In this document: piece by piece, positions 1-64,000 of the stretch | How the letters are laid out: every line of letters starts with the position of its first letter | Position numbering within the stretch: position 1 is the first letter of the stretch | From: Meghimatium bilineatum | Lineage: Eukaryota > Mollusca > Gastropoda > Stylommatophora > Philomycidae | Assembly: GCA_034231615.1 (NCBI GenBank) | Contig: CM067315.1 | Coordinates: 17,401,513 to 17,465,512 of the forward strand | Length of the DNA: 64,000 nucleotides | Direction of reading: 5' to 3' | Position numbers and translations under genes: made by a program | The notes under the pieces: model-generated | The model's input: only the letters and a program-made list of their open reading frames with translations | What the model was told of the DNA's origin: nothing | The model's database searches: none

Positions 1-22
1 TTACAATTTCTGGTGTAGTAAG
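1..22 (+). repeat. Partial monomer I at left window edge
   Basis: This is the 3' tail of an I monomer (TTACAATTTCTGG followed by TGTAGTAAG). It leads directly into the first complete A monomer at 23, so the array continues to the left of the window. Confidence 0.95.
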
Positions 23-82
23 CTGCAATACAACGAAATCACGTGTAATAGACCAGAATACACTCAATTCTAGCGTAGAATG
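23..82 (+). repeat. Monomer A (60 bp) of the reference L unit
   Basis: Monomer A opens with CTGCAATACAACG and usually ends in TAGAAAG; this copy ends in TAGAATG. It carries the palindrome CACGTG at 40-45. A is retained in all unit types (L, S, S' and T), so it is the most frequent monomer in the window. The join to B normally creates an AAGCTT (HindIII) site, lost in this copy by the AATG variant. Confidence 0.95.
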
Positions 83-141
83 CTTCAGTACAATGGGTTT
101 GTGAGTAATATGCTAGAATAACAGAGTTTTGGCGTACTAAA
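83..141 (+). repeat. Monomer B (59 bp)
   Basis: Monomer B opens CTTCAGTACAATGGG and ends GGCGTACTAAA. It shares the 16-base core TTTGTGAGTAATATGC with monomer H. That shared stretch is where B and H are fused in the three-monomer T units. Right-hand units often carry GTGGGTAAT instead of GTGAGTAAT. Confidence 0.95.
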
Positions 142-190
142 CTGCAATAGACCCAATTCGTGCGTTATACGACAATTCTGAAGTAGTAAG
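142..190 (+). repeat. Monomer C (49 bp, short class)
   Basis: Monomer C opens CTGCAATAGACCC and ends GAAGTAGTAAG. Relative to 60-bp monomers it lacks about 11 bases around the CCAGAATAC motif. It exists in GCGTTATACG and GCGTAATACG forms. The TAATACG form is usual in S units and the TTATACG form is usual in L units. Confidence 0.95.
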
Positions 191-241
191 CTACAATACA
201 CCAAATTCGTGTGTCCAGAATACAATTTCTGTTCTAGTAAG
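191..241 (+). repeat. Monomer D (51 bp, short class)
   Basis: Monomer D opens CTACAATACACCAAA and ends TCTGTTCTAGTAAG. It is the closest relative of I, sharing the start and the 16-base stretch CAGAATACAATTTCTG, which marks the D/I fusion point in S units. In many right-hand L units from 33915 onward the D tail has become I-like (TCTGGTGTAGTAAG). Confidence 0.95.
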
Positions 242-299
242 CTGCAGTACACAATTTGTTAGTTATATACCAGAATACAACGAGATCTGACATACTAAA
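242..299 (+). repeat. Monomer E (58-60 bp)
   Basis: Monomer E opens CTGCAGTACAC (PstI) and ends GATCTGACATACTAAA, which includes AGATCT (BglII). Length depends on GTTAGATATGCC (58 bp) versus GTTAGTTATATGCC (60 bp). Here GTTAGTTATATACC is combined with loss of CT after GTACA, giving 58 bp. E, F and G are absent from S, S' and T units. Confidence 0.95.
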
Positions 300-350
300 C
301 AGCAAGAGACCTAATTTGTGTGTAGTACGCCAGTTTTCTGACGTCTTAAG
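300..350 (+). repeat. Monomer F (51 bp, short class)
   Basis: Monomer F opens CAGCAAGAGACC, the most diverged monomer start, and ends TCTGACGTCTTAAG. Its 3' end defines subfamilies: GACGTCTTAAG (51 bp), GACGTCTCTAG or GACGTTTCTAG (51 bp), and GACGTCAAG (49 bp). The last belongs to the 495-bp L subtype and creates an 8-base palindrome. Confidence 0.95.
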
Positions 351-410
351 CTGCAATACATCAAATTAGTGTATAAATTGCCAGGATATACAGAGTTCTG
401 TTGTAGAAAG
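351..410 (+). repeat. Monomer G (60 bp)
   Basis: Monomer G opens CTGCAATACATCA and ends GTTCTGTTGTAGAAAG, with the G-specific motif AAATTGCCAGGATATACAG. Variants include a 2-base loss (ATACAGTTCTG), GCCAGAATATAC, and GTTTTAG in the 495-bp L subtype. Confidence 0.95.
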
Positions 411-470
411 CTGCAGTACACTCAATTTGTGAGTAATATGCCAGAATACAACGAGTTCTAACGTAGTAAG
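411..470 (+). repeat. Monomer H (60 bp), best example of internal half-repeats
   Basis: Monomer H opens CTGCAGTACACTC and ends AACGTAGTAAG. Its two halves can be aligned: GTAAGCTGC, AGTAC, AATTTGTG against GTAATATGC, CAGAATAC, GAGTTCTA. This supports an older unit of about 30 bp. Indel variants are a 3-base loss giving ATACGAGTTC or ACAACTTCT, a 6-base loss near 25420, and AACGGTAAG in the 495-bp subtype. Confidence 0.93.
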
Positions 471-519
471 CTACAATACACCAAATTCGTGTTCAGAATA
501 CAATTTCTGGTGTAGTAAG
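471..519 (+). repeat. Monomer I (49 bp, short class), end of unit
   Basis: Monomer I opens CTACAATACACCAAA and ends TCTGGTGTAGTAAG; the next A monomer begins at 520. The middle reads GTGCAGATTAC mainly in the left third and GTGCAGAATAC mainly to the right, making it a useful subfamily marker. This copy reads GTGTTCAGAATAC. Confidence 0.95.
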
Positions 520-1013
520 CTGCAATACAACGAAATCACGTGTAATAGACCAGAATACACTCAATTCTAGTGTAGAAAGCTTCAGTACAATGGATGTGTG
601 AGTAATATGCTAGAATAACAGAGTTTTGGCGTACTAAACTGCAATAGACCCAATTCGTGCGTTATACGACAATTCTGAAGTAGTAAGCTACAATACACCA
701 AAGTCGTGTGTCCAGAATACAATTTCTGTTCTAGTAGGCTGCAGTACACTCATTTTGTTAGATATGCCAGAATACAACGAGATCTGACATACTAAACAGC
801 AAGAGACCTAATTTGTGTGTAGTACGCCATTTTTCTGACGTCTTAAGCTGCAATACATAATATTAGTGTGTAAATTGCCAGGATATACAGAGTTCTGTTG
901 TAGAAAGCTGCAGTACACTCAATTTGTGAGTAATATGCCAGAATACGAGTTCTAACGTAGTAAGCTACAATAAACCAAATTCGTGTGCAGATTACAATTT
1001 CTGGTGTAGTAAG

Positions 1014-1232
1014 CTGCAATACAACGAAATCACGCGTAATAGACCAGAATACACTCAATTCTAGTGTAGAAAGCTTCAGTACAATGGGTGTGTGAGTAAT
1101 ATGCTAGAATAACAGAGTTTTGGCGTACTAAACTGCAATAGACCCAATTCGTGCGTAATACGACAATTCTGAAGTAGTAAGCTACAATACACCAAATTAG
1201 TGTGTCCAGAATACAATATCTGGTGTAGTAAG
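1014..1232 (+). repeat. Reference S unit (219 bp, A-B-C-D/I)
   Basis: The unit holds intact A, B and C monomers followed by a chimera that starts as D (GTGTCCAGAATAC) and ends as I (TCTGGTGTAGTAAG). The next unit starts at 1233. The length equals L minus 278 bp: the second part of D, all of E, F, G and H, and the first part of I. D and I share CAGAATACAATTTCTG, so the deletion could have occurred by recombination within those 16 bases. S is the second commonest unit, with 53 copies counted. Confidence 0.94.
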
Positions 1233-1401
1233 CTGAAATACAACGAAATCACGTGTAATAGACCAGAATACACTCAATTCTAGTGTAGAAAGCTTCAGTA
1301 CAATGGGTTTGTGAGTAATATGCCAGAATACAACGAGTTCAAACGTAGTAAGCTACAATACACCAAATTCGTGTGCAGAATACAATTTCTGGTGTAGTAA
1401 G
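1233..1401 (+). repeat. Reference T unit (169 bp, A-B/H-I)
   Basis: The unit contains monomer A with the variant start CTGAAATAC, then a B/H chimera that begins CTTCAGTAC and ends like H (AACGAGTTCAAACG), then I. Its length equals L minus 328 bp: part of B, all of C to G, and part of H. The ten T units share the AGTTCAAACG variant where I checked and always follow an S unit. That suggests one founding deletion spread by duplication of an S-T pair. Confidence 0.93.
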
Positions 1402-4400
1402 CTGCAATACAACGAAATCACGTGTAATAGACCAGAATACACTCAATTCTAGTGTAGAAAGCTTCAGTACAATGGGTTTGTGAGTAATATGCTAGAATAA
1501 CATAGTTTTGGCGTACTAAACTGCAATAGACCCAATTCGTGCGTTATACGACAATTCTGAAGTAGTAAGCTACAATACACCAAAGTAGTGTGTCCAGAAT
1601 ACAATTTCTGTTCTAGTAAGCTGCAGTACACTCAATTTGTTAGATATGCCAGAATACAACGAGATCTGACATACTAAACAGCAAGAGACCTAATTTGTGT
1701 GTAGTACGCCAGTTTTCTGACGTCTTAAGCTGCAATACATCATATTAGTGTGTAAATTGCCAGGATATACAGAGTTCTGTTGTAGAAAGCTGCAGTACAC
1801 TCAATTTGTGAGTAATATGCCAGAATACAACGAGTTCTAACGTAGTAAGCTACAATACACCAAATTCGTGTGCAGATTACAATTTCTGGTGTAGTAAGCT
1901 GCAATACAACGAAATCACGTGTAATAGACCAGAATACACTCAATTCTAGTGTAGAAAGCTTCAGTACAATGGGTGTGTGAGTAATATGCTAGAATAACAG
2001 AGTTTTGGCGTACTAAACTGCAATAGACCCAATTCGTGCGTTATACGACAATTCTGAAGTAGTAAGCTACAATACACCAAATTCGTGTGTCCAGAATACA
2101 ATTTCTGTTCTAGTAGGCTGCAGTACACTCAATTTGTTAGATATGCCAGAATACAACGAGATCTGACATACTAAACAGCAAGAGACCTAATTTGTGTGTA
2201 GTACGCCAGTTTTCTGACGTCTTAAGCTGCAATACATAATATTAGTGTGTAAATTGCCAGGATATACAGAGTTCTATTGTAGAAAGCTGCAGTACACTCA
2301 ATTTGTGAGTAATATGCCAGAATACAACGAGTTCTAACGTAGTAAGCTACAATACACCAAATTCGTGTGCAGATTACAATTTCTGGTGTAAACAGCTGCA
2401 ATACAAAGAAATCACGTGTAATAGACCAGAATACACTCAATTCTAGCGTAGAAAGCTTCAGTACAATAGATTTGTGAGTAATATGCTAGAATAACAGAGT
2501 TTTGGCGTACTAAACTGCAATAGACCCAATTCGTGCGTAATACGACAATTCTGAAGTAGTAAGATACAATACACCAAATTCGTGTGTCCAGAATACAATT
2601 TCTGGTGTAGTAAGCTGCAATACAACTAAATTACGTGTAATAGACCAGAATACACTCAATTCTAGTGTAGAAAGCTTCAGTACAATGGGTTTGTGAGTAA
2701 TATGCTAGAATAACAGAGTTTTGGCGTACTAAACTGCAATAGAACCAATTCGTGCGTTATACGACAATTCTGAAGTAGTAAGCTACAATACACCAAATTC
2801 GTGTGTCCAGAATACAATTTCTGTTCTAGTAAGCTGCATTACACAATTTGTTAGTTATATGCCAGAATACAACGAGATCTGACATACTAAACAGCAAGAG
2901 ACCTAATTTGTGTGTAGTACGCCAGTCTTCTGATGTCTTAAGTTGCAATACATCAAATTAGTGTGTAAATTCCCAAGATATACAGAGTTCTGTTGTAGAA
3001 AGCTGCAGTACACTCAATTTGTGAGTAATATGCCAGAATACAACGAGTTCTAACGTAGCAAGCTACAATACACCAAATTCGTGTGCAGATTACAATTTCT
3101 GGTGTAGTAAGCTGCAATACAACGAAATCACGTGTAATAGACCAGAATACACTCAATTCTAGCGTAGAAACCTTCAGTACAATGGGTTTGTGAGTAATAT
3201 GCTAGAATAACAGAGTTTTGGCGTACTAAACTGCAATAGACCCAATTCGTGCGTAATACGACAATTCTGAAGTAGTAAGCTACAATACACCAAATTAGTG
3301 TGTCCAGAATACAATATCTGGTGTAGTAAGCTGAAATACAACGAAATCACGTGTAATAGACCAGAATACACTCAATTCTAGTGTAGAAAGCTTCAGTACA
3401 ATGGGTTTGTGAGTAATATGCCAGAATACAACGAGTTCAAACGTAGTAAGCTACAATACACCAAATTCGTGTGCAGAATACAATTTCTGGTGTAGTAAGC
3501 TGCAATACAACGAAATCACGTGTAATAGACCAGAATACACTCAATTCTAGTGTAGAAAGCTTCAGTACAATGGGTTTGTGAGTAATATGCTAGAATAACA
3601 TAGTTTTGGCGTACTAAACTGCAATAGACCCAATTCGTGCGTTATACGACAATTCTGAAGTAGTAAGCTACAATACACCAAAGTAGTGTGTCCAGAATAC
3701 AATTTCTGTTCTAGTAAGCTGCAGTACACTCAATTTGTTAGATATGCCAGAATACAACGAGATCTGACATACTAAACAGCAAGAGACCTAATTTGTGTGT
3801 AGTACGCCAGTTTTCTGACGTCTTAAGCTGCAATACATCATATTAGTGTGTAAATTGCCAGGATATACAGAGTTCTGTTGTAGAAAGCTGCAGTACACTC
3901 AATTTGTGAGTAATATGCCAGAATACAACGAGTTCTAACGTAGTAAGCTACAATACACCAAATTCGTGTGCAGATTACAATTTCTGGTGTAGTAAGCTGC
4001 AATACAACGAAATCACGTGTAATAGACCAGAATACACTCAATTCTAGCGTAGAATGCTTCAGTACAATGGGTTTGTGAGTAATATGCTAGAATAACAGAG
4101 TTTTGGCGTACTAAACTGCAATAGACCCAATTCGTGCGTTATACGACAATTCTGAAGTAGTAAGCTACAATACACCAAATTCGTGTGTCCAGAATACAAT
4201 TTCTGTTCTAGTAAGCTGCAGTACACAATTTGTTAGTTATATGCCAGAATACAACGAGATCTGACATACTGAACAGCAAGAGACCTAATTTGTGTGTAGT
4301 ACGCCAGTTTTCTGACGTCTTAAGCTGCAATACATCAAATTAGTGTATAAATTGCCAGGATATACAGAGTTCTGTTGTAGAAAGCTGCAGTACACTCAAT

Positions 4401-6585
4401 TTGTGAGTAATATGCCAGAATACAACGAGTTCTAACGTAGTAAGCTACAATACACCAAATTCGTGTGCAGATTACAATTTCTGGTGTAGTAAGCTGCAAT
4501 ACAACGAAATCACGTGTAATAGACCAGAATACACTCAATTCTAGCGTAGAATGCTTCAGTACAATGGGTTTGTGAGTAATATGCTAGAATAACAGAGTTT
4601 TGGCGTACTAAACTGCAATAGACCCAATTCGTGCGTTATACGACAATTCTGAAGTAGTAAGCTACAATACACCAAAGTCGTGTGTCCAGAATACAATTTC
4701 TGTTCTAGTAGGCTGCAGTACACTCAATTTGTTAGATATGCCAGAATACAACGAGATCTGACATACTAAACAGCAAGAGACCTAATTTGTGTGTAGTACG
4801 CCAGTTTTCTGACGTCTTAAGCTGCAATACATAATATTAGTGTGTAAATTGCCAGGATATACAGAGTTCTGTTGTAGAAAGCTGCAGTACACTCAATTTG
4901 TGAGTAATATGCCAGAATACAACGAGTTCTAACGTAGTAAGCTACAATACACCAAATTCGTGTGCAGATTACAATTTCTGGTGTAAAAAGCTGCAATACA
5001 AAGAAATCACGTGTAATAGGCCAGAATATACTCAATTCTAGCGTAGAAAGCTTCAGTACAATGGGTTTGTGAGTAATATGCTAGAATAACAGAGTTTTGG
5101 CGTACTAAACTGCAATAGACCCAATTCGTGCGTAATACGACAATTCTGAAGTAGTAAGCTACAATACACCAAATTCGTGTGTCCAGAATACAATTTCTGG
5201 TGTAGTAAGCTGCAATACAACTAAATCACGTGTAATAGACCAGAATACACTCAATTCTAGTGTAGAAAGCTTCAGTACAATGGGTTTGTGAGTAATATGC
5301 TAGAATAACAGAGTTTTGGCGTACTAAACTGCAATAGACCCAATTCGTGCGTTATACGACAATTCTGAAGTAGTAAGCTACAATACACCAAAGTCGTGTG
5401 TCCAGAATACAATTTCTGTTCTAGTAAGCTGCAGTACACTCAATTTGTTAGATATGCCAGAATACAACGAGATCTGACATACTAAACAGCAAGAGACCTA
5501 ATTTGTGTGTAGTACGCCAGTTTTCTGACGTCTTAAGCTGCAATACATCATATTAGTGTGTAAATTGCCAGGATATACAGAGTTCTGTAATAGAAAGCTG
5601 CAGTACACTAAATTTGTGAGTAATATGCCAGAATACGAGTTCTAACGTAGTAAGCTACAATAAACCAAATTCGTGTGCAGAATACAATTTCTGGTGTAGT
5701 AAGCTGCAATACAACGAAATCACGTGTAATAGACCAGAATACACTCAATTCTAGCGTAGAAAGCTTCAGTACAATGGGTTTGTGAGTAATATGCTAGAAT
5801 AACAGAGTTTTGGCGTACTAAACTGCAATAGACCCACTTCGTGCGTAATACGACAATTCTGAAGTAGTAAGCTACAATACACCAAATTCGTGTGTCCAGA
5901 ATACAATATCTGGTGTAGTAAGCTGAAATACAACGAAATCACGTGTAATAGACCAGAATACACTCAATTCTAGTGTAGAAAGCTTCAGTACAATGGGTTT
6001 GTGAGTAATATGCCAGAATACAACGAGTTCAAACGTAGTAAGCTACAATACACCAAATTCGTGTGCAGAATACAATTTCTGGTGTAGTAAGCTTCAATAC
6101 AACGAAATCACGTGTAATAGACCAGAATACACTCAATTCTAGTGTAGAAAGCTTCAGTACAATGGGTTTGTGAGTAATATGCTAGAATAACATAGTTTTG
6201 GCGTACTAAACTGCAATAGACCCAATTCGTGCGTTATACGACAATTCTGTAGTAAGCTACAATACACCAAAGTAGTGTGTCCAGAATACAATTTCTGTTC
6301 TAGTAAGCTGCAGTACACTCAATTTGTTAGATATGCCAGAATACAACGAGATCTGACATACTAAACAGCAAGAGACCTAATTTGTGTGTAGTACGCCAGT
6401 TTTCTGACGTCTTAAGCTGCAATACATCATATTAGTGTGTAAATTGCCAGGATATACAGAGTTCTGTTGTAGAAAGCTGCAGTACACTCAATTTGTGAGT
6501 AATATGCCAGAATACAACGAGTTCTAACGTAGTAAGCTACAATACACCAAATTCGTGTGCAGATTACAATTTCTGGTGTAGTAAG

Positions 6586-9500
6586 CTGCAATACAACGAA
6601 ATCACGTGTAATAGACCAGAATACACTCAATTCTAGCGTAGAATGCTTCAGTACAATGGGTTTGTGAGTAATATGCTAGAATAACAGAGTTTTGGCGTAC
6701 TAAACTGCAATAGACCCAATTCGTGCGTTATACGACAATTCTGAAGTAGTAAGCTACAATACACCAAATTCGTGTGTCCAGAATACAATTTCTGTTCTAG
6801 TAAGCTGCAGTACACAATTTGTTAGTTATATACCAGAATACAACGAGATCTGACATACTAAACAGCAAGAGACCTAATTTGTGTGTAGTACGCCAGTTTT
6901 CTGACGTCTTAAGCTGCAATACATCAAATTAGTGTATAAATTGCCAGGATATACAGAGTTCTGTTGTAGAAAGCTGCAGTACACTCAATTTGTGAGTAAT
7001 ATGCCAGAATACAACGAGTTCTAACGTAGTAAGCTACAATACACCAAATTCGTGTTCAGAATACAATTTCTGGTGTAGTAAGCTGCAATACAACGAAATC
7101 ACGTGTAATAGACCAGAATACACTCAATTCTAGTGTAGAAAGCTTCAGTACAATGGATGTGTGAGTAATATGCTAGAATAACAGAGTTTTGGCGTACTAA
7201 ACTGCAATAGACCCAATTCGTGCGTTATACGACAATTCTGAAGTAGTAAGCTACAATACACCAAAGTCGTGTGTCCAGAATACAATTTCTGTTCTAGTAG
7301 GCTGCAGTACACTCATTTTGTTAGATATGCCAGAATACAACGAGATCTGACATACTAAACAGCAAGAGACCTAATTTGTGTGTAGTACGCCATTTTTCTG
7401 ACGTCTTAAGCTGCAATACATAATATTAGTGTGTAAATTGCCAGGATATACAGAGTTCTGTTGTAGAAAGCTGCAGTACACTCAATTTGTGAGTAATATG
7501 CCAGAATACGAGTTCTAACGTAGTAAGCTACAATAAACCAAATTCGTGTGCAGATTACAATTTCTGGTGTAGTAAGCTGCAATACAACGAAATCACGCGT
7601 AATAGACCAGAATACACTCAATTCTAGTGTAGAAAGCTTCAGTACAATGGGTGTGTGAGTAATATGCTAGAATAACAGAGTTTTGGCGTACTAAACTGCA
7701 ATAGACCCAATTCGTGCGTAATACGACAATTCTGAAGTAGTAAGCTACAATACACCAAATTAGTGTGTCCAGAATACAATATCTGGTGTAGTAAGCTGAA
7801 ATACAACGAAATCACGTGTAATAGACCAGAATACACTCAATTCTAGTGTAGAAAGCTTCAGTACAATGGGTTTGTGAGTAATATGCCAGAATACAACGAG
7901 TTCAAACGTAGTAAGCTACAATACACCAAATTCGTGTGCAGAATACAATTTCTGGTGTAGTAAGCTGCAATACAACGAAATCACGTGTAATAGACCAGAA
8001 TACACTCAATTCTAGTGTAGAAAGCTTCAGTACAATGGGTTTGTGAGTAATATGCTAGAATAACATAGTTTTGGCGTACTAAACTGCAATAGACCCAATT
8101 CGTGCGTTATACGACAATTCTGAAGTAGTAAGCTACAATACACCAAAGTAGTGTGTCCAGAATACAATTTCTGTTCTAGTAAGCTGCAGTACACTCAATT
8201 TGTTAGATATGCCAGAATACAACGAGATCTGACATACTAAACAGCAAGAGACCTAATTTGTGTGTAGTACGCCAGTTTTCTGACGTCTTAAGCTGCAATA
8301 CATCATATTAGTGTGTAAATTGCCAGGATATACAGAGTTCTGTTGTAGAAAGCTGCAGTACACTCAATTTGTGAGTAATATGCCAGAATACAACGAGTTC
8401 TAACGTAGTAAGCTACAATACACCAAATTCGTGTGCAGATTACAATTTCTGGTGTAGTAAGCTGCAATACAACGAAATCACGTGTAATAGACCAGAATAC
8501 ACTCAATTCTAGTGTAGAAAGCTTCAGTACAATGGGTGTGTGAGTAATATGCTAGAATAACAGAGTTTTGGCGTACTAAACTGCAATAGACCCAATTCGT
8601 GCGTTATACGACAATTCTGAAGTAGTAAGCTACAATACACCAAATTCGTGTGTCCAGAATACAATTTCTGTTCTAGTAGGCTGCAGTACACTCAATTTGT
8701 TAGATATGCCAGAATACAACGAGATCTGACATACTAAACAGCAAGAGACCTAATTTGTGTGTAGTACGCCAGTTTTCTGACGTCTTAAGCTGCAATACAT
8801 AATATTAGTGTGTAAATTGCCAGGATATACAGAGTTCTATTGTAGAAAGCTGCAGTACACTCAATTTGTGAGTAATATGCCAGAATACAACGAGTTCTAA
8901 CGTAGTAAGCTACAATACACCAAATTCGTGTGCAGATTACAATTTCTGGTGTAAACAGCTGCAATACAAAGAAATCACGTGTAATAGACCAGAATACACT
9001 CAATTCTAGCGTAGAAAGCTTCAGTACAATAGATTTGTGAGTAATATGCTAGAATAACAGAGTTTTGGCGTACTAAACTGCAATAGACCCAATTCGTGCG
9101 TAATACGACAATTCTGAAGTAGTAAGATACAATACACCAAATTCGTGTGTCCAGAATACAATTTCTGGTGTAGTAAGCTGCAATACAACTAAATTACGTG
9201 TAATAGACCAGAATACACTCAATTCTAGTGTAGAAAGCTTCAGTACAATGGGTTTGTGAGTAATATGCTAGAATAACAGAGTTTTGGCGTACTAAACTGC
9301 AATAGAACCAATTCGTGCGTTATACGACAATTCTGAAGTAGTAAGCTACAATACACCAAATTCGTGTGTCCAGAATACAATTTCTGTTCTAGTAAGCTGC
9401 ATTACACAATTTGTTAGTTATATGCCAGAATACAACGAGATCTGACATACTAAACAGCAAGAGACCTAATTTGTGTGTAGTACGCCAGTCTTCTGATGTC

Positions 9501-12500
9501 TTAAGTTGCAATACATCAAATTAGTGTGTAAATTCCCAAGATATACAGAGTTCTGTTGTAGAAAGCTGCAGTACACTCAATTTGTGAGTAATATGCCAGA
9601 ATACAACGAGTTCTAACGTAGCAAGCTACAATACACCAAATTCGTGTGCAGATTACAATTTCTGGTGTAGTAAGCTGCAATACAACGAAATCACGTGTAA
9701 TAGACCAGAATACACTCAATTCTAGCGTAGAAACCTTCAGTACAATGGGTTTGTGAGTAATATGCTAGAATAACAGAGTTTTGGCGTACTAAACTGCAAT
9801 AGACCCAATTCGTGCGTAATACGACAATTCTGAAGTAGTAAGCTACAATACACCAAATTAGTGTGTCCAGAATACAATATCTGGTGTAGTAAGCTGAAAT
9901 ACAACGAAATCACGTGTAATAGACCAGAATACACTCAATTCTAGTGTAGAAAGCTTCAGTACAATGGGTTTGTGAGTAATATGCCAGAATACAACGAGTT
10001 CAAACGTAGTAAGCTACAATACACCAAATTCGTGTGCAGAATACAATTTCTGGTGTAGTAAGCTGCAATACAACGAAATCACGTGTAATAGACCAGAATA
10101 CACTCAATTCTAGTGTAGAAAGCTTCAGTACAATGGGTTTGTGAGTAATATGCTAGAATAACATAGTTTTGGCGTACTAAACTGCAATAGACCCAATTCG
10201 TGCGTTATACGACAATTCTGAAGTAGTAAGCTACAATACACCAAAGTAGTGTGTCCAGAATACAATTTCTGTTCTAGTAAGCTGCAGTACACTCAATTTG
10301 TTAGATATGCCAGAATACAACGAGATCTGACATACTAAACAGCAAGAGACCTAATTTGTGTGTAGTACGCCAGTTTTCTGACGTCTTAAGCTGCAATACA
10401 TCATATTAGTGTGTAAATTGCCAGGATATACAGAGTTCTGTTGTAGAAAGCTGCAGTACACTCAATTTGTGAGTAATATGCCAGAATACAACGAGTTCTA
10501 ACGTAGTAAGCTACAATACACCAAATTCGTGTGCAGATTACAATTTCTGGTGTAGTAAGCTGCAATACAACGAAATCACGTGTAATAGACCAGAATACAC
10601 TCAATTCTAGCGTAGAATGCTTCAGTACAATGGGTTTGTGAGTAATATGCTAGAATAACAGAGTTTTGGCGTACTAAACTGCAATAGACCCAATTCGTGC
10701 GTTATACGACAATTCTGAAGTAGTAAGCTACAATACACCAAATTCGTGTGTCCAGAATACAATTTCTGTTCTAGTAAGCTGCAGTACACAATTTGTTAGT
10801 TATATGCCAGAATACAACGAGATCTGACATACTGAACAGCAAGAGACCTAATTTGTGTGTAGTACGCCAGTTTTCTGACGTCTTAAGCTGCAATACATCA
10901 AATTAGTGTATAAATTGCCAGGATATACAGAGTTCTGTTGTAGAAAGCTGCAGTACACTCAATTTGTGAGTAATATGCCAGAATACAACGAGTTCTAACG
11001 TAGTAAGCTACAATACACCAAATTCGTGTGCAGATTACAATTTCTGGTGTAGTAAGCTGCAATACAACGAAATCACGTGTAATAGACCAGAATACACTCA
11101 ATTCTAGCGTAGAATGCTTCAGTACAATGGGTTTGTGAGTAATATGCTAGAATAACAGAGTTTTGGCGTACTAAACTGCAATAGACCCAATTCGTGCGTT
11201 ATACGACAATTCTGAAGTAGTAAGCTACAATACACCAAAGTCGTGTGTCCAGAATACAATTTCTGTTCTAGTAGGCTGCAGTACACTCAATTTGTTAGAT
11301 ATGCCAGAATACAACGAGATCTGACATACTAAACAGCAAGAGACCTAATTTGTGTGTAGTACGCCAGTTTTCTGACGTCTTAAGCTGCAATACATAATAT
11401 TAGTGTGTAAATTGCCAGGATATACAGAGTTCTGTTGTAGAAAGCTGCAGTACACTCAATTTGTGAGTAATATGCCAGAATACAACGAGTTCTAACGTAG
11501 TAAGCTACAATACACCAAATTCGTGTGCAGATTACAATTTCTGGTGTAAAAAGCTGCAATACAAAGAAATCACGTGTAATAGGCCAGAATATACTCAATT
11601 CTAGCGTAGAAAGCTTCAGTACAATGGGTTTGTGAGTAATATGCTAGAATAACAGAGTTTTGGCGTACTAAACTGCAATAGACCCAATTCGTGCGTAATA
11701 CGACAATTCTGAAGTAGTAAGCTACAATACACCAAATTCGTGTGTCCAGAATACAATTTCTGGTGTAGTAAGCTGCAATACAACTAAATCACGTGTAATA
11801 GACCAGAATACACTCAATTCTAGTGTAGAAAGCTTCAGTACAATGGGTTTGTGAGTAATATGCTAGAATAACAGAGTTTTGGCGTACTAAACTGCAATAG
11901 ACCCAATTCGTGCGTTATACGACAATTCTGAAGTAGTAAGCTACAATACACCAAAGTCGTGTGTCCAGAATACAATTTCTGTTCTAGTAAGCTGCAGTAC
12001 ACTCAATTTGTTAGATATGCCAGAATACAACGAGATCTGACATACTAAACAGCAAGAGACCTAATTTGTGTGTAGTACGCCAGTTTTCTGACGTCTTAAG
12101 CTGCAATACATCATATTAGTGTGTAAATTGCCAGGATATACAGAGTTCTGTAATAGAAAGCTGCAGTACACTAAATTTGTGAGTAATATGCCAGAATACG
12201 AGTTCTAACGTAGTAAGCTACAATAAACCAAATTCGTGTGCAGAATACAATTTCTGGTGTAGTAAGCTGCAATACAACGAAATCACGTGTAATAGACCAG
12301 AATACACTCAATTCTAGCGTAGAAAGCTTCAGTACAATGGGTTTGTGAGTAATATGCTAGAATAACAGAGTTTTGGCGTACTAAACTGCAATAGACCCAC
12401 TTCGTGCGTAATACGACAATTCTGAAGTAGTAAGCTACAATACACCAAATTCGTGTGTCCAGAATACAATATCTGGTGTAGTAAGCTGAAATACAACGAA

Positions 12501-13148
12501 ATCACGTGTAATAGACCAGAATACACTCAATTCTAGTGTAGAAAGCTTCAGTACAATGGGTTTGTGAGTAATATGCCAGAATACAACGAGTTCAAACGTA
12601 GTAAGCTACAATACACCAAATTCGTGTGCAGAATACAATTTCTGGTGTAGTAAGCTTCAATACAACGAAATCACGTGTAATAGACCAGAATACACTCAAT
12701 TCTAGTGTAGAAAGCTTCAGTACAATGGGTTTGTGAGTAATATGCTAGAATAACATAGTTTTGGCGTACTAAACTGCAATAGACCCAATTCGTGCGTTAT
12801 ACGACAATTCTGTAGTAAGCTACAATACACCAAAGTAGTGTGTCCAGAATACAATTTCTGTTCTAGTAAGCTGCAGTACACTCAATTTGTTAGATATGCC
12901 AGAATACAACGAGATCTGACATACTAAACAGCAAGAGACCTAATTTGTGTGTAGTACGCCAGTTTTCTGACGTCTTAAGCTGCAATACATCATATTAGTG
13001 TGTAAATTGCCAGGATATACAGAGTTCTGTTGTAGAAAGCTGCAGTACACTCAATTTGTGAGTAATATGCCAGAATACAACGAGTTCTAACGTAGTAAGC
13101 TACAATACACCAAATTCGTGTGCAGATTACAATTTCTGGTGTAGTAAG
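6586..13148 (+). repeat. 6563-bp cassette, copy 2
   Basis: Every unit start is copy 1 plus 6563, in the same L/S/T order. All private variants I spot-checked are reproduced at plus 6563, including those near 9031, 9193, 10832, 12151 and 12398. I saw no difference in the places compared, but did not align every base. Such identity implies a very recent duplication, or possibly an assembly artefact. Confidence 0.95.
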
Positions 13149-18000: not shown

Positions 18001-18108
18001 TGCAGTACACTCAATTTGTGAGTAATATGCCAGAATACAACGAGTTCTAACGTAGTAAGCTACAATACACCAAATTCGTGTGCAGATTACAATTTCTGGT
18101 GTAGTAAG
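15025..18108 (+). repeat. 3084-bp cassette, copy 1 (8 units)
   Basis: Unit starts: 15025 L (495), 15520 L (497), 16017 S, 16236 L (494), 16730 L (497), 17227 S, 17446 T, 17615 L (494); these sum to 3084. Markers are AATTCGTTCAG near 15490, TGTAGCAAGC near 15511, GTTGTACG near 15661, AGATTAATATTTC near 15995, TAGTGAAGAAAG near 16285 and CTAACAAAGTAAG near 17165. All recur at plus 3084. Confidence 0.95.
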
Positions 18109-49835: not shown

Positions 49836-52757
49836 CTGCAATACAACGAAATCACGTGTAATTGACCAGAATACACTCAATTCTAGTGTAGAAAGCTTCA
49901 GTACAATGGGTTTGTGAGTAATATGCTAGAATAACAGAGTTTTGGCGTACTAAACTGCAATAGACCCAATTCGTGCGTTATACGACAATTCTGAAGTAGT
50001 AAGCTACAATACACCAAATTCGTGTGTCCAGAATACAATTTCTGGTGTAGTAAGCTGCAGTACACTCAATTTGTTAGTTATATGCCAGAATACAACGAGA
50101 TCTGACATACTAAACAGCAAGAGACCTAATTTGTGTGTAGTACGCCAGTTTTCTGACGTCTTAAGCTGCAATACATCAAATTAGTGTGTAAATTGCCAGG
50201 ATATACAGAGTTCTGTTGTAGAAAGCTGCAGTACACTCAATTTGTGAGTAATATGCCATAATACAACTTCTAACGTAGTAAGCTACAATACACCAAATTC
50301 GTGTGCAGAATACAATTTCTGGTGTAGTAAGCTGCAATACAACGAAATCACGTGTAATAGACCAGAATACACTCAATTCTAGTGTACAAAGCTTCAGTAC
50401 AATGGGTTTGTGAGTAATATGCTAGAATCACAGAGTTTTGGTGTAGTAAACTGCAATAGACCCAATTCGTGCGTAATACGACAATTCTGAAGTAGTAAGC
50501 TACAATAGACCAAATTCGTGTGTCCAGAATACAATTTCTGTTCTAGTAAGCTGCAGTACACTCAATTTGTTAGTTATATGCCAGAATACAACGAGATCTG
50601 ACATACTAAACAGCAAGAGACCTAATTTGTGTGTAGTACGCCAGTTTTCTGACGTTTCTAGCTGCAATACATCAAATTAGTGTGTAAATTGCCAGGATAT
50701 ACAGAGTTCTGTTGTAGAATGCTGCAGTACACTCAATTTGTGAGTAATATGCCAGAATACAACGAGTTCTAACGTAGTAAGCTACAATACACCAAATTCG
50801 TGTGCAGAATACAATTTCTGGTGTAGTAAGCTGCAATACAAAGAAATCACGTGTAATAGACCAGAATACACTCAATTCTAGTGTAGAAAGCTTCAGTACA
50901 ATGGGTTTGTGAGTAATATGCTAGAATAACAGAGTTTTGGCGTACTAAACTGCAATAGACCCAATTCGTGCGTAATACGACAATTCTGAAGTAGTAAGCT
51001 ACAATAGACCAAATTCGTGTGTCCAGAATACAATTTCTGGTGTAGTAATCTGCAATACAACGAAATCACGTGTAATAGACCAGAATACACTCAATTCTAG
51101 TGTAGAAAGCTTCAGTACAATGGGTTTGTGGGTAATATGCTAGAATAACAGAGTTTTGGCGTACTAAACTGCAATAGACCGAATTCGTGCGTTATACGAC
51201 AATTCTGAAGTAGTGAGCTACAATACACCAAATTCGTGTGTCCAGAATACAATTTCTGGTGTAGTAAGCTGCAGTACACTCAATTTGTTAGTTATATGCC
51301 AGAATACAACGAGATCTGACATACTAAACAACAAGAGACCTAATTTGTGTGTAGTACGCCAGTTTTCTGACGTCAAGCTGCAATACATCAAATTAGTGTG
51401 TAAATTGCCAGGATATACAGAGTTCTGTTTTAGAAAGCTGCAGTACACTCAATTTGTGAGTAATATGCCAGATTACAACGAGTTCTAACGGTAAGCTACA
51501 ATACACCAAATTCGTGTGCAGAATACAGTTTCTGGCGCAGTAAGCTGCAATACAACGAAATCACGTGTAATAGACCAGAATACACTCAATTCTAGTGTAG
51601 AAAGCTTCAGTACAATGGGTTTGTGGGTAATATGCTAGAATAACAGAGTTTTGGCGTACTAAACTGCAATAGACCCAATTCGTGCGTTATACGACAATTC
51701 TGAAGTAGTAAGCTACAATACACCAAATTCGTGTGTCCAGAATACAATTTCTGGTGTAGTAAGCTGCAGTACACTCAATTTGTTAGTTATATGCCAGAAT
51801 ACAACGAGATCTGACATTCTAAACAACAAGAGACCTAATTTGTGTGTAGTACGCCAGTTTTCTGACGTCAAGCTGCAATACATCAAATTAGTGTGTAAAT
51901 TGCCAGGATATACAGAGTTCTGTTTTAGAAAGCTGCAGTACACTCAATTTGTGAGTAATATGCCAGATTACAACGAGTTCTAACGGTAAGCTACAATACA
52001 CCAAATTCGTGTGCAGAATACAATTTCTGGCGCAGTAAGCTGCAATACAACGAAATCACGTGTAATAGACCAGAATACACTCAATTCTAGTGTAGAAAGC
52101 TTCAGTACAATGGGTTTGTGAGTAATATGCTAGAATAACAGAGTTTTGGCGTACTAAACTGCAATAGACCCAATTTGTGCGTAATACGACAATTCTGAAG
52201 TAGTAAGCTACAATAGACCAAATTCGTGTGTCCAGAATACAATTTCTGGTGTAGTAAGCTGCAGTACACTCAATTTGTTAGTTATATGCCAGAATACAAC
52301 GAGATCTGACATACTAAACAACAAGAGACCTAATTTGTGTGTAGTACGCCAATTTTCTGACGTCTCTAGCTGCAATACATCAAATTAGTGTGTAAATTGC
52401 CAGGATATACAGAGTTCTGTTGTAGAAAGCTGCAGTACACTCAATTTGTGAGTAATATGCCAGAATACAACGAGTTCTAACGTAGTAAGCTACTATACAC
52501 CAAATTCGTGTGCAGAATACAATTTCTGGTGTAGTAAGCTGCAATACAACGAAATCACGTGTAATAGACCAGAATACACTCAATTCTAGTGTAGAAAGCT
52601 TCAGTACAATGGGTTTGTGAGTAATATGCTAGAATAACAGAGTTTTGGCGTACTAAACTGCAATAGACCCAATTCGTGCGTAATACGACAATTCTGAAGT
52701 AGTAAGCTACAATAGACCAAATTCGTGTGTCCAGAATACAATTTCTGGTGTAGTAAG
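49836..52757 (+). repeat. 2922-bp cassette core (7 units)
   Basis: Unit starts: 49836 L (496), 50332 L (499), 50831 S, 51050 L (495), 51545 L (495), 52040 L (499), 52539 S; these sum to 2922. Relative to 46200-49835 it lacks one S-L pair (714 bp). The unit at 51050 begins like 47414 (GACCGAATTC, GTAGTGAGC) and ends like 48128 (ATACAGTTTCTGGCGCAG), so the exchange point lies inside that L. Confidence 0.94.
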
Positions 52758-55700
52758 CTGCAATACAACGAAATCACGTGTAATTGACCAGAATACACTC
52801 AATTCTAGTGTAGAAAGCTTCAGTACAATGGGTTTGTGAGTAATATGCTAGAATAACAGAGTTTTGGCGTACTAAACTGCAATAGACCCAATTCGTGCGT
52901 TATACGACAATTCTGAAGTAGTAAGCTACAATACACCAAATTCGTGTGTCCAGAATACAATTTCTGGTGTAGTAAGCTGCAGTACACTCAATTTGTTAGT
53001 TATATGCCAGAATACAACGAGATCTGACATACTAAACAGCAAGAGACCTAATTTGTGTGTAGTACGCCAGTTTTCTGACGTCTTAAGCTGCAATACATCA
53101 AATTAGTGTGTAAATTGCCAGGATATACAGAGTTCTGTTGTAGAAAGCTGCAGTACACTCAATTTGTGAGTAATATGCCATAATACAACTTCTAACGTAG
53201 TAAGCTACAATACACCAAATTCGTGTGCAGAATACAATTTCTGGTGTAGTAAGCTGCAATACAACGAAATCACGTGTAATAGACCAGAATACACTCAATT
53301 CTAGTGTACAAAGCTTCAGTACAATGGGTTTGTGAGTAATATGCTAGAATCACAGAGTTTTGGTGTAGTAAACTGCAATAGACCCAATTCGTGCGTAATA
53401 CGACAATTCTGAAGTAGTAAGCTACAATAGACCAAATTCGTGTGTCCAGAATACAATTTCTGTTCTAGTAAGCTGCAGTACACTCAATTTGTTAGTTATA
53501 TGCCAGAATACAACGAGATCTGACATACTAAACAGCAAGAGACCTAATTTGTGTGTAGTACGCCAGTTTTCTGACGTTTCTAGCTGCAATACATCAAATT
53601 AGTGTGTAAATTGCCAGGATATACAGAGTTCTGTTGTAGAATGCTGCAGTACACTCAATTTGTGAGTAATATGCCAGAATACAACGAGTTCTAACGTAGT
53701 AAGCTACAATACACCAAATTCGTGTGCAGAATACAATTTCTGGTGTAGTAAGCTGCAATACAAAGAAATCACGTGTAATAGACCAGAATACACTCAATTC
53801 TAGTGTAGAAAGCTTCAGTACAATGGGTTTGTGAGTAATATGCTAGAATAACAGAGTTTTGGCGTACTAAACTGCAATAGACCCAATTCGTGCGTAATAC
53901 GACAATTCTGAAGTAGTAAGCTACAATAGACCAAATTCGTGTGTCCAGAATACAATTTCTGGTGTAGTAATCTGCAATACAACGAAATCACGTGTAATAG
54001 ACCAGAATACACTCAATTCTAGTGTAGAAAGCTTCAGTACAATGGGTTTGTGGGTAATATGCTAGAATAACAGAGTTTTGGCGTACTAAACTGCAATAGA
54101 CCGAATTCGTGCGTTATACGACAATTCTGAAGTAGTGAGCTACAATACACCAAATTCGTGTGTCCAGAATACAATTTCTGGTGTAGTAAGCTGCAGTACA
54201 CTCAATTTGTTAGTTATATGCCAGAATACAACGAGATCTGACATACTAAACAACAAGAGACCTAATTTGTGTGTAGTACGCCAGTTTTCTGACGTCAAGC
54301 TGTAATACATCAAATTAGTGTGTAAATTGCCAGGATATACAGAGTTCTGTTGTAGAAAGCTGCAGTACACTCAATTTGTGAGTAATATGCCAGAATACAA
54401 CGAGTTCTAACGTAGTAAGCTACAATACACCAAATTCGTGTGCAGAATACAATTTCTGGTGTAGTAAGCTGCAATACAAAGAAATCACGTGTAATAGACC
54501 AGAATACACTCAATTCTAGTGTAGAAAGCTTCAGTACAATGGGTTTGTGAGTAATATGCTAGAATAACAGAGTTTTGGCGTACTAAACTGCAATAGACCC
54601 AATTCGTGCGTAATACGACAATTCTGAAGTAGTAAGCTACAATAGACCAAATTCGTGTGTCCAGAATACAATTTCTGGTGTAGTAAGCTGCAATACAACG
54701 AAATCACGTGTAATAGACCAGAATACACTCAATTCTAGTGTAGAAAGCTTAAGTACAATGGGTTTGTGGGTAATATGCTAGAATAACAGAGTTTTGGCGT
54801 ACTAAACTGCAATAGACCCAATTCGTGCGTTATACGACAATTCTGAAGTAGTAAGCTACAATACACCAAATTCGTGTGTCCAGAATACAATTTCTGGTGT
54901 AGTAAGCTGCAGTACACTCAATTTGTTAGTTATATGCCAGAATACAACGAGATCTGACATACTAAACAACAAGAGACCTAATTTGTGTGTAGTACGCCAG
55001 TTTTCTGACGTCAAGCTGCAATACATCAAATTAGTGTGTAAATTGCCAGGATATACAGAGTTCTGTTTTAGAAAGCTGCAGTACACTCAATTTGTGAGTA
55101 ATATGCCAGATTACAAGGAGTTCTAACGGTAAGCTACAATACACCAAATTCGTTTGCAGAATACAATTTCTGGCGCAGTAAGCTGCAATACAACGAAATC
55201 ACGTGTAATAGACCAGAATACACTCAATTCTAGTGTAGAAAGCTTCAGTACAATGGGTTTGTGAGTAATATGCTAGAATAACAGAGTTTTGGCGTACTAA
55301 ACTGCAATAGACCCAATTTGTGCGTAATACGACAATTCTGAAGTAGTAAGCTACAATAGACCAAATTCGTGTGTCCAGAATACAATTTCTGGTGTAGTAA
55401 GCTGCAGTACACTCAATTTGTTAGTTATATGCCAGAATACAACGAGATCTGACATACTAAACAGCAAGAGACCTAATTTGTGTGTAGTACGCCAATTTTC
55501 TGACGTCTCTAGCTGCAATACATCAAATTAGTGTGTAAATTGCCAGGATATACAGAGTTCTGTTGTAGAAAGCTGCAGTACACTCAATTTGTGAGTAATA
55601 TGCCAGAATACAACGAGTTCTAACGTAGTAAGCTACTATACACCAAATTCGTGTGCAGAATACAATTTCTGGTGTAGTAAGCTGCAATACAACGAAATCA

Positions 55701-60969: not shown

Positions 60970-61465
60970 CTGCAATACAACGAAATCACGTGTAATAGAC
61001 CAGAATACACTCAATTCTAGTGTAGAAAGCTTCAGTACAATGGGTTTGTGAGTAATATGCTAGAATAACAGAGTTTTGGCGTACTAAACTGCAATAGACC
61101 CAATTCGTGCGTTATACGACAATTCTGAAGTAGTAAGCTACAATACACCAAATTCGTGTGTCCAGAATACAATTTCTGGTGTAGTAAGCTGCAGTACACT
61201 CAATTTGTTAGTTATATGCCAGAATACAACGAGATCTGACATACTAAACAGCAAGAGACCTAATTTGTGTGTAGTACGCCAGTTTTCTGACGTCTTAAGC
61301 TGCAATACATCAAATTAGTGTGTAAATTGCCAGGATATACAGAGTTCTGTTGTAGAAAGCTGCAGTACACTCAATTTGTGAGTAATATGCCAGAATACAA
61401 CTTCTAACGTAGTAAGCTACAATACACCAAATTCGTGTGCAGAATACAATTTCTGGTGTAGTAAG
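60970..61465 (+). repeat. L unit (496 bp)
   Basis: This L has ACAACTTCTAACG in H and TGTACAAAGC at the following A/B junction. It corresponds to 49836-50331 at an offset of 11134, but has CCAGAATAC where 49836 has CCATAATAC. Confidence 0.93.
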
Positions 61466-62677
61466 CTGCAATACAACGAAATCACGTGTAATAGACCAGA
61501 ATACACTCAATTCTAGTGTACAAAGCTTCAGTACAATGGGTTTGTGAGTAATATGCTAGAATCACAGAGTTTTGGTGTAGTAAACTGCAATAGACCCAAT
61601 TCGTGCGTAATACGACAATTCTGAAGTAGTAAGCTACAATAGACCAAATTCGTGTGTCCAGAATACAATTTCTGTTCTAGTAAGCTGCAGTACACTCAAT
61701 TTGTTAGTTATATGCCAGAATACAACGAGATCTGACATACTAAACAGCAAGAGACCTAATTTGTGTGTAGTACGCCAGTTTTCTGACGTTTCTAGCTGCA
61801 ATACATCAAATTAGTGTGTAAATTGCCAGGATATACAGAGTTCTGTTGTAGAATGCTGCAGTACACTCAATTTGTGAGTAATATGCCAGAATACAACGAG
61901 TTCTAACGTAGTAAGCTACAATACACCAAATTCGTGTGCAGAATACAATTTCTGGTGTAGTAAGCTGCAATACAAAGAAATCACGTGTAATAGACCAGAA
62001 TACACTCAATTCTAGTGTAGAAAGCTTCAGTACAATGGGTTTGTGAGTAATATGCTAGAATAACAGAGTTTTGGCGTACTAAACTGCAATAGACCCAATT
62101 CGTGCGTAATACGACAATTCTGAAGTAGTAAGCTACAATAGACCAAATTCGTGTGTCCAGAATACAATTTCTGGTGTAGTAATCTGCAATACAACGAAAT
62201 CACGTGTAATAGACCAGAATACACTCAATTCTAGTGTAGAAAGCTTCAGTACAATGGGTTTGTGGGTAATATGCTAGAATAACAGAGTTTTGGCGTACTA
62301 AACTGCAATAGACCGAATTCGTGCGTTATACGACAATTCTGAAGTAGTGAGCTACAATACACCAAATTCGTGTGTCCAGAATACAATTTCTAGTGTAGTA
62401 AGCTGCAATACACTCAATTTGTTAGTTATATGCCAGAATACAACGAGATCTGACATACTAAACAACAAGAGACCTAATTTGTGTGTAGTACGCCAGTTTT
62501 CTGACGTCAAGCTGCAATACATCAAATTAGTGTGTAAATTGCCAGGATATACAGAGTTCTGTTGTAGAAAGCTGCAGTACACTCAATTTGTGAGTAATAT
62601 GCCAGAATACAACTTCTAACGTAGTAAGCTACTATACACCAAATTCGTGTGCAGAATACAATTTCTGGTGTAGTAAG
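61466..62677 (+). repeat. 1212-bp duplication, copy 1 (L-S-L)
   Basis: Unit starts: 61466 L (499), 61965 S, 62184 L (494). The last L begins as the GACCGAATTC/GTAGTGAGC type with GACGTCAAGC. It then switches in G/H to the ACAACTTCT type followed by CTACTATACACC. TTTCTAGTGTAG near 62387 is private. Confidence 0.93.
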
Positions 62678-63890
62678 CTGCAATACAACGAAATCACGTG
62701 TAATAGACCAGAATACACTCAATTCTAGTGTACAAAGCTTCAGTACAATGGGTTTGTGAGTAATATGCTAGAATCACAGAGTTTTGGTGTAGTAAACTGC
62801 AATAGACCCAATTCGTGCGTAATACGACAATTCTGAAGTAGTAAGCTACAATAGACCAAATTCGTGTGTCCAGAATACAATTTCTGTTCTAGTAAGCTGC
62901 AGTACACTCAATTTGTTAGTTATATGCCAGAATACAACGAGATCTGACATACTAAACAGCAAGAGACCTAATTTGTGTGTAGTACGCCAGTTTTCTGACG
63001 TTTCTAGCTGCAATACATCAAATTAGTGTGTAAATTGCCAGGATATACAGAGTTCTGTTGTAGAATGCTGCAGTACACTCAATTTGTGAGTAATATGCCA
63101 GAATACAACGAGTTCTAACGTAGTAAGCTACAATACACCAAATTCGTGTGCAGAATACAATTTCTGGTGTAGTAAGCTGCAATACAAAGAAATCACGTGT
63201 AATAGACCAGAATACACTCAATTCTAGTGTACAAAGCTTCAGTACAATGGGTTTGTGAGTAATATGCTAGAATAACAGAGTTTTGGCGTACTAAACTGCA
63301 ATAGACCCAATTCGTGCGTAATACGACAATTCTGAAGTAGTAAGCTACAATAGACCAAATTCGTGTGTCCAGAATACAATTTCTGGTGTAGTAATCTGCA
63401 ATACAACGAAATCACGTGTAATAGACCAGAATACACTCAATTCTAGTGTAGAAAGCTTCAGTACAATGGGTTTGTGGGTAATATGCTAGAATAACAGAGT
63501 TTTGGCGTACTAAACTGCAATAGACCGAATTCGTGCGTTATACGACAATTCTGAAGTAGTGAGCTACAATACACCAAATTCGTGTGTCCAGAATACAATT
63601 TCTGGTGTAGTAAGCTGCAGTACACTCAATTTGTTAGTTATATGCCAGAATACAACGAGATCTGACATACTAAACAACAAGAGACCTAATTTGTGTGTAG
63701 TACGCCAGTTTTCTGACGTCAAGCTGCAATACATCAAATTAGTGTGTAAATTGCCAGGATATACAGAGTTCTGTTTTAGAAAGCTGCAGTACACTCAATT
63801 TGTGAGTAATATGCCAGATTACAACGAGTTCTAACGGTAAGCTACAATACACCAAATTCGTGTGCAGAATACAATTTCTGGTGTAGTAAG
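62678..63890 (+). repeat. 1212-bp duplication, copy 2 (L-S-L, 1213 bp)
   Basis: Unit starts: 62678 L (499), 63177 S, 63396 L (495). Order and markers follow copy 1 (GACGTTTCTAG, GTAGAATGC, GTAATCTGC, GACCGAATTC). The last L is here the ordinary 495-bp subtype throughout (GTTTTAG, AACGGTAAG). Confidence 0.93.
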
Positions 63891-64000
63891 CTGCAATACA
63901 ACGAAATCACGTGTAATAGACCAGAATACACTCAATTCTAGTGTAGAAAGCTTCAGTACAATGGGTTTGTGAGTAATATGCTAGAATAACAGAGTTTTGG
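63891..64000 (+). repeat. Partial unit at right window edge
   Basis: Monomer A is complete, with CACGTG, and is followed by 50 bases of B ending at AGAGTTTTGG. The array continues beyond the window. Confidence 0.95.

What the first reader, a model, noticed from the sequence alone, without database searches (positions are those of the whole stretch)
1..64000. Four-level nested satellite with no unique-sequence interruption over 64 kb
Half-monomer (about 30 bp), monomer (about 50/60 bp), nine-monomer HOR (497 bp) and cassettes of HOR units (1-6.5 kb) are all visible. The unit lengths I measured add up exactly to the cassette periods: 6563, 3084, 2870 and 2922. HOR satellites are known in several animals and plants. 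A HOR built from such short monomers with three deletion-derived unit types and another cassette layer is unusually rich. I do not recognise the family.
Basis: partly seen in the sequence, partly recalled or inferred. Interest (0 to 1): 0.7.

Follow-up and report, generated by a model that had tools for sequence, protein, structure and literature searches.

The report
Slug satellite DNA, probably centromeric
The whole stretch is a repeat-within-repeat satellite from what is by its chromosome sizes a land slug; it is part of one large block inside chromosome 18, and the same family sits at internal places on other chromosomes, as centromere DNA would, with an organisation much like human alpha satellite.

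Summary
All 64 kb align to one 499-bp unit at 98.5% identity with no foreign insert: 102 full units plus four deletion types, b 219, c 169, d 225, e 217 bp, built of nine 49-60-bp monomers. The cassette periods are real.

Monomers resemble each other most at a distance of three, and a ~171-bp three-monomer repeat exists by itself in older flanks and on chromosome 1. So the 499-bp unit is three ~166-bp units.

The window lies at 17.40-17.47 Mb on chromosome 18 of a genome whose chromosome lengths match the land slug Meghimatium bilineatum. The array spans about 17.09-17.75 Mb: diverged 171-type flanks, homogeneous 499-bp core. The family was found on 14 of 25 chromosomes; on the 10 with two or more places these lie within 1.25 Mb, independently shown on six.

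Best reading: (peri)centromeric satellite of the alpha-satellite kind, grown by unequal exchange. Kinetochore function is inferred. Mouse major satellite already shows similar nesting. New member of a known kind.

The parts
1..64000 (+). Part of the homogeneous core of the 499-bp HOR satellite array (C18:17,401,513-17,465,512); 167 units, all on + strand
1378..1874 (+). Example of a full A unit (497 bp, nine monomers = three ~166-bp trimers)
2372..2590 (+). Example of a b unit (219 bp): deletion joining monomer 4 to monomer 9 (96% alike, the most similar of 36 pairs); 50 copies
1209..1377 (+). Example of a c unit (169 bp): deletion joining monomer 2 to monomer 8, leaving one trimer length; 10 copies, all between 1209 and 22547
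33228..33452 (+). Example of a d unit (225 bp), junction also in monomers 4 and 9 but out of register; 3 copies (33228, 36097, 38467)
25679..25895 (+). Example of an e unit (217 bp): 4 x 9 exchange with a crossover point different from b (31 bp of exact homology); 2 copies (25679, 27602)
1..6563 (+). First copy of the 6563-bp cassette
6564..14072 (+). Second copy of the 6563-bp cassette and start of a further copy; identical to 1-7509 without a difference
14899..21491 (+). 3084-bp cassettes in tandem (14899-18407 versus 17983-21491, 99.5% with gaps)
31784..37507 (+). 2868-2870-bp spacing (31784-34639 versus the copy ~2.87 kb on), broken by small indels
31974..39885 (+). 5239-bp spacing (31974-34646 versus 37213-39885, 99.4%)
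47846..54422 (+). 2922-bp cassettes in tandem (47846-51500 versus 50768-54422, 99.7%)

Best explanation
A 30-bp element was doubled and varied into 60- and 50-bp monomers. Three of them make a ~171-bp unit of nucleosome size, which forms older, diverged arrays. On chromosomes 18 and 2, three such units became a 499-bp HOR that was amplified. Inside the amplified core, exchange between alike monomers cut out blocks (b, c, d, e), and segments of several units were duplicated in tandem as cassettes. Shown: the hierarchy, the junctions, the layering in samples of chromosome 18, and compact internal places on the chromosomes with two or more known places. Inferred: the order of events, unequal exchange as the mechanism, and that the block is the centromere or its direct neighbour, acting through helically phased, nucleosome-sized repeats rather than a canonical CENP-B box.
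For: (1) Place: 20,973 matches of a 24-base core (12,625 forward, 8,348 reverse; reversed-pattern control 0). The list is cut, but as it runs in contig order and reaches chromosome 2 it appears complete for chromosome 1: six matches, all at 70.126-70.412 Mb. Two rare-variant patterns gave 14 and 38 places. Together: 14 chromosomes; 10 have two or more known places, each within 1.25 Mb; 4 have one. On six (1, 2, 4, 9, 18, 20) the compactness rests on different variants, patterns or samples. The places lie 31-78% along the chromosomes (lengths). (2) Layering in samples of chr18: diverged copies at 17.092-17.211 Mb, 82-89% to the HOR consensus; core 17.213-17.736 Mb, 97-99%; inverted 171-type at 17.738-17.748 Mb; none at 17.765 Mb and beyond. 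(3) Chr2: none at 44.300, 171-type at 44.350, 499 HOR from ~44.359 to at least 45.3 Mb in samples, with 11 majority differences from chr18. (4) Junctions b, d and e all join monomers 4 and 9, rank 1 of 36 in similarity; c joins 2 and 8, tied third at 86%. (5) Neighbouring A units differ at 15.0 sites on average, units 1.5-3.5 kb apart at 12.8 with 16 identical pairs, units over 30 kb apart at 19-20. (6) Weak/weak dinucleotides repeat every 9.98 bp, 35 times the mean harmonic; 0 of 500 dinucleotide shuffles reach it. (7) Sixteen samples at or beyond the array edges (35.6 kb) hold no other tandem array over 330 bp.
Against: No CENP-A or chromatin data. 11 of 25 chromosomes gave no place with the sparse patterns; four have one place; on four more (8, 10, 23, 25) the two or three places share one variant and may be one local amplification, so compactness is biased there. 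No site with 0 or 1 mismatch to the 9-base CENP-B core; 255 sites with 2 mismatches on the minus strand and none on the plus strand, against 40 in one base shuffle of the plus strand. A paper on another slug, Laevicaulis alte, proposes holocentric chromosomes (PMC13336835, passages). The shift-3 signal for the trimer level is modest (p = 0.022). The 171-bp consensus was built from L107, so the 97% of L107 is not independent. The longest invariant run in the unit is not longer than chance (p = 0.13).
Confidence: 0.7

Rival explanations
1. Pericentromeric heterochromatin satellite: it marks the centromere region, but the kinetochore sits on other DNA nearby.
For: Mouse major satellite, whose nesting this resembles most, is pericentric (PMC8122249 and PMC3218096, passages). 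No CENP-B-like box. On the right of the chr18 array, fragments at 17.8-18.5 Mb match reverse transcriptase or RNase H families.
Against: Sixteen samples at or beyond the array edges (35.6 kb) show no other tandem array over 330 bp; these are small samples, so another array could have been missed.
Confidence: 0.21
2. Non-centromeric heterochromatin block (knob) or selfish satellite on chromosomes without a localised centromere.
For: Holocentry is proposed for the slug Laevicaulis alte (PMC13336835, passages).
Against: Compact internal places on the 10 chromosomes with two or more known places, six of them by independent variants, patterns or samples, fit a localised centromere better.
Confidence: 0.06
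3. The cassette level, above all the 6563-bp duplication without one difference over 7,509 bp, is an assembly error in a long satellite. (Compatible with any of the functional readings.)
For: Zero differences over 7.5 kb. The published assembly anchored 2521 contigs by Hi-C. No reads were available here.
Against: Other cassettes differ by 0.3-0.6%, and samples of the core outside the window have the same main unit types, so the lower levels do not depend on that duplication.
Confidence: 0.1

Closest known systems
Primate alpha satellite (human centromeres)
   Same: A 171-bp base unit, HORs in the core, diverged non-HOR copies at the flanks, chromosome-specific variants, deletion variants of the HOR (alpha-satellite features partly recalled, partly from passages).
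   Different: Sequence was not compared; the base unit is itself three 50-60-bp monomers; no canonical CENP-B box. The 171-bp agreement is numerical.
Mouse major satellite (MaSat)
   Same: 28/30-bp halves, 58/60-bp monomers, a larger unit (234 bp) and a 2154-bp HOR above it (PMC3218096, passages).
   Different: Here monomers also come in 49-51-bp form, the next unit is ~171 bp (three monomers) and then 499 bp; copies are 98.5% like the consensus, against a mean variability of ~15% reported for 234-bp MaSat arrays.
Cascading / tertiary HORs of human alpha satellite
   Same: HOR copies that contain repeats of parts of themselves; variants by deletion and duplication (PMC11157248, passages).
   Different: Different family and host; here the repetition above the HOR is whole cassettes of HOR and deletion units.
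Satellites of molluscs (Crassostrea gigas, Patella caerulea)
   Same: Mollusc repeats studied for centromere or satellite function.
   Different: In the oyster, CenH3-bound DNA is described as not uniform and dispersed (PMC7348941, abstract and outline); Patella PcH-Sat is proposed to come from a SINE (PMC11121367, search listing only).

Membership tests
Satellite DNA with higher-order repeats | Units much more alike between HOR copies than monomers within one copy | tested here: met
   98.5% to the HOR consensus versus 65-96% between monomers
Satellite DNA with higher-order repeats | Copies without the HOR occur, diverged, at the array edge | tested here: met
   171-type copies at the edges of the chr18 and chr2 arrays
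Centromeric satellite | One main block per chromosome at an internal place | tested here: inconclusive
   Compact on the 10 chromosomes with two or more places (six by independent variants, patterns or samples); 4 have one place; 11 of 25 gave none with sparse patterns
Centromeric satellite | Bound by CENP-A (CenH3) | not testable with these tools
   needs chromatin data
CENP-B-box satellites | TTCGNNNNANNCGGG core | tested here: not met
   0 sites with 0 or 1 mismatch on either strand of the window
Alpha satellite | Homology to the primate 171-bp monomer | not tested
   no alpha-satellite sequence was compared; only length and organisation are alike
Mouse major satellite | Homology to the 234-bp unit | not tested
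   only the published architecture was compared

The most novel reading that the evidence does not exclude
A mollusc has independently evolved an alpha-satellite-like centromere: a 171-bp nucleosome-sized unit with older flanks, a HOR core and chromosome-specific variants. The young HOR carries a perfect CACGTG palindrome (ATCACGTG) in 159 of 167 units, in every deletion type (97 of 102 A, 47 of 50 b, 10 of 10 c, 3 of 3 d, 2 of 2 e), where the older 171-type samples read ATCATGTG; a sequence-specific protein bound there could play the part that CENP-B plays on alpha satellite.
Probability: 0.08. Interest if true: 0.8.

Novelty: new member of a known kind. Interest (0 to 1): 0.5.

Why it matters
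It gives a probable centromere sequence for a land slug, a group in which one recent paper argues for holocentric chromosomes and for which none of the listings and passages I saw describes a centromere satellite. It shows the alpha-satellite pattern (171-bp unit, HOR core, older non-HOR flanks) outside primates, with an older step of the hierarchy still readable beside the newer one. CenH3 ChIP against this one sequence would decide monocentric versus holocentric for the species.

Tried and rejected
Coding, RNA and phage readings: nine ORFs of 82-91 aa that repeat with the unit, no Rfam match at gathering scores, no tRNA, no phage match for window 1-7000, no exact match of the 24-base pattern in viral contigs or GTDB genomes. 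Plasmid and E. coli collections were not searched.

CENP-B box: not found. CACGTG as a sign of function: CACGTG occurs 160 times, ATCACGTG 159 times in the window. In older samples ATCACGTG is 0 and ATCATGTG 4, 3, 1, 1, 3, 1, 2, 14, 8 and 8 (L011, L012, L097-L101, L107, L105, L106; L105 and L106 overlap), while the border locus L108 has 3 and 8. The longest invariant run in the unit lies elsewhere and is not longer than chance (p = 0.13), so this stays a speculation.

DNA methylation signature: C>T at CpG 21 of 1749 against 22 of 9781 at other C, but G>A at CpG 15 (of about as many sites) against 91 of 10482, no excess; mixed, not used.

Mended on the way: a first reading that the inverted right flank is an older 499-bp HOR was wrong, because my script printed forward-strand jumps for the reverse strand; redid it and the flank is 171-type. 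A note of mine called two inserts in the chr18 array LINEs; that is by eye only: the one ORF of L021 that was tested has no Pfam match and L036 was not tested. A note of mine gave ~113 bp for a repeat in L045; the computed period is 106-107.

Literature: sequence strings (39 papers hold at least one string, 20 listed, none on satellites by title); other searches: (no paper). No satellite database (Repbase, Dfam) was on hand, so 'family not described' rests on these searches of an open-licence library. The species name was recalled from genome size and chromosome number and then checked against the paper's table of chromosome lengths (passages).
Full report
What is there. The window is satellite from end to end. 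A dynamic-programming walk of the 64,000 bases over a 499-bp consensus (built from 12 units) gives 98.5% identity, 11 inserted bases, 65 long jumps and no 60-bp window below 86.7%. The unit string has 102 A, 50 b, 10 c, 3 d and 2 e (167 units). The consensus splits into 18 half-units, nine monomers of 49-60 bp. GC is even, 37.0-37.6% in 4-kb windows. Nine ORFs of 82-91 aa that repeat with the unit, no Rfam family, no tRNA.

How the deletion types arose. Units b, d and e all join monomer 4 to monomer 9; these two are 96% alike, the most similar of the 36 pairs. Unit c joins monomer 2 to monomer 8 (86%, tied third). The b and c junctions run into 16 bp and the e junction into 31 bp of exact homology; d is out of register, with no exact homology at the point called. 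Exchange between like monomers would leave such traces; d fits less well. The b and e junctions fall on different sides of a 2-bp length difference (219 versus 217 bp), so they look like separate events (inference).

Cassettes. Ungapped self-matches of at least 1.5 kb at 98% or more cover 79% of the window. The 6563-bp repeat has no difference over 7,509 bp; 3084 and 2922 are 99.5 and 99.7%; the 2870 period drifts between 2868 and 2870. Neighbouring A units differ more (15.0 sites, 56 pairs, none identical) than A units 1.5-3.5 kb apart (12.8, 301 pairs, 16 identical), and units more than 30 kb apart differ most (19.3-19.9): homogenisation is local and works on cassettes. The c units occur only up to 22547 in the window. 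In samples of the rest of the array they are seen at 17.25-17.38 Mb, not in two short samples at 17.220 and 17.235 Mb, and in none from 17.465 Mb on, where several samples are pure or nearly pure A.

A level between monomer and HOR. Mean similarity between monomers is highest at a distance of three (0.766 against 0.67-0.70 at other distances; with another aligner 0.805 against a permutation mean of 0.769, p = 0.022). A tandem ~171-bp repeat of three monomers exists by itself on chromosome 1: five samples of 301 bases (L142-L146) are 93-96% like the consensus without jumps, and L107, from which that consensus was made, 97%. Two overlapping loci near its edge (L105, L106) are less regular, 86-87% with 7 jumps each. 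It also fits the inverted right flank of the chr18 array (five of five samples, 86-90%, no jumps) and the left edge of the chr2 array (L133, 96%, no jumps). In the left layer of chr18 it needs fewer jumps than the 499-bp unit in 8 of 9 samples rescored (one tie; for L011 17 versus 46) at about the same identity; three further left samples (L085, L087, L088) and the partly satellite L036 were not rescored. One left sample has periods 171, 282 and 453, so 111-bp forms occur as well. The three thirds of the 499-bp unit are 87, 84 and 76% like the chromosome 1 consensus. So 30 -> 50/60 -> ~171 -> 499 -> cassettes is the simplest reading; the direction in time is inferred from divergence and from position at the edges.

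Where it is. The window is G000:C18:17401513-17465512 of a 1.612-Gb genome of 32 contigs. The lengths of its large contigs agree with those I saw for Meghimatium bilineatum (e.g. chr1 135.71, chr5 25.66, chr18 44.30, chr25 105.18 Mb; 25 chromosomes and seven unplaced scaffolds; PMC10770140, passages). TTAGGG-type telomere repeats begin 11 of the 32 contigs sampled at their start and end C18. On chr18 the samples show: at most scraps at 17.084 and 17.088 Mb, diverged layer from 17.092 to 17.211 Mb (82-89% to the HOR consensus) with non-satellite at 17.160 Mb and in most of the 17.180 Mb sample, homogeneous core from 17.213 to 17.736 Mb with one foreign insert seen at 17.503 Mb, inverted diverged layer at 17.738-17.748 Mb, its end within the 17.750 Mb sample, none at 17.765 Mb and beyond. 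Six ORF fragments from the right flank (17.8-18.5 Mb) and one from the insert were scanned: 5 of 7 match reverse transcriptase, endonuclease or RNase H families, one of these under its cut-off; the insert ORF has no match. The left flank was not scanned. Sixteen samples at or beyond the array edges hold no other tandem array over 330 bp.

Other chromosomes. The 24-base core pattern has 20,973 matches in the genome (reversed control 0). At the window's 3.66 per kb that is about 5.7 Mb; since 171-type arrays hold few matches the family may be larger; the genome paper lists 7.76 Mb of satellite in all. The list of places is cut, but in contig order it appears complete for chromosome 1: six matches, all at 70.126-70.412 Mb. 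Two rarer patterns gave 14 and 38 places. Together the family is known on chromosomes 1, 2, 4, 8, 9, 10, 14, 16, 18, 19, 20, 23, 24 and 25. Ten have at least two known places, always within 1.25 Mb. On 1, 2, 4, 9, 18 and 20 these come from different variants, patterns or samples; on 8, 10, 23 and 25 they share one variant and could be one local amplification; 14, 16, 19 and 24 have one place each. Chromosomes 3, 5, 6, 7, 11, 12, 13, 15, 17, 21 and 22 gave no place with these sparse patterns, which does not show absence. Chr2 has the same 499-bp HOR with 11 majority differences from chr18, 98.2% alike within itself over 17 units.

How it probably works. A compact internal block with a homogeneous core and older edges is what a centromere satellite looks like. 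The repeat has a strong 9.98-bp period of weak/weak dinucleotides (35 times the mean; 0 of 500 shuffles), and each of the 18 half-units is within 2 of a multiple of 10 bp (not tested against chance), so indels have kept helical phase; with a ~166-171-bp unit this suits regular nucleosomes. These are structural hints; that CENP-A sits here is inferred. No CENP-B core with 0 or 1 mismatch is present, which does not exclude a centromere.

Comparison. Mouse major satellite has nearly the same low levels (28/30, 58/60) and further levels above (234, 2154) (PMC3218096, passages), so nesting by itself is not new. The 171-bp unit with HOR core and older flanks is the plan of alpha satellite. I compared organisation, not sequence, so it is filed as a new family of a known kind and not as a member of either.

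Noticed in passing
C18 17,213,000-17,736,000 (L013-L025, L037-L044): Unit types change along the core in samples: A, b and c at 17.25-17.42 Mb, A and b further right, several pure or nearly pure A samples from 17.52 Mb on.
   Followed up: partly
L045 (C18 17,750,000) and L081 (C32 start): The right end of the array passes into a GC-richer sequence with a weak 106-107-bp period that by eye resembles part of the unplaced contig C32.
   Followed up: partly
L021 from position 2979 (C18 17.503 Mb); L036 from position 297 (C18 17.180 Mb): Foreign inserts inside the array; by eye remnants of non-LTR retrotransposons, one starting with TTC repeats. Not confirmed.
   Followed up: partly
consensus position 39-46 of each unit; older layers L011, L012, L097-L101, L105-L107: Young units carry ATCACGTG, older copies ATCATGTG.
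   Followed up: partly
first 700 bases of C2, C3, C5, C6, C7, C9, C14, C15, C16, C18, C19, C20, C26, C29: These 14 contigs begin with N, while 11 others (C4, C8, C10-C13, C17, C21, C23-C25) begin with telomere repeats; scaffold padding or withheld sequence, cannot tell.
   Followed up: no
window 1-14072: Two cassette copies of 6563 bp without one difference over 7,509 bp: very recent duplication or assembly error.
   Followed up: partly
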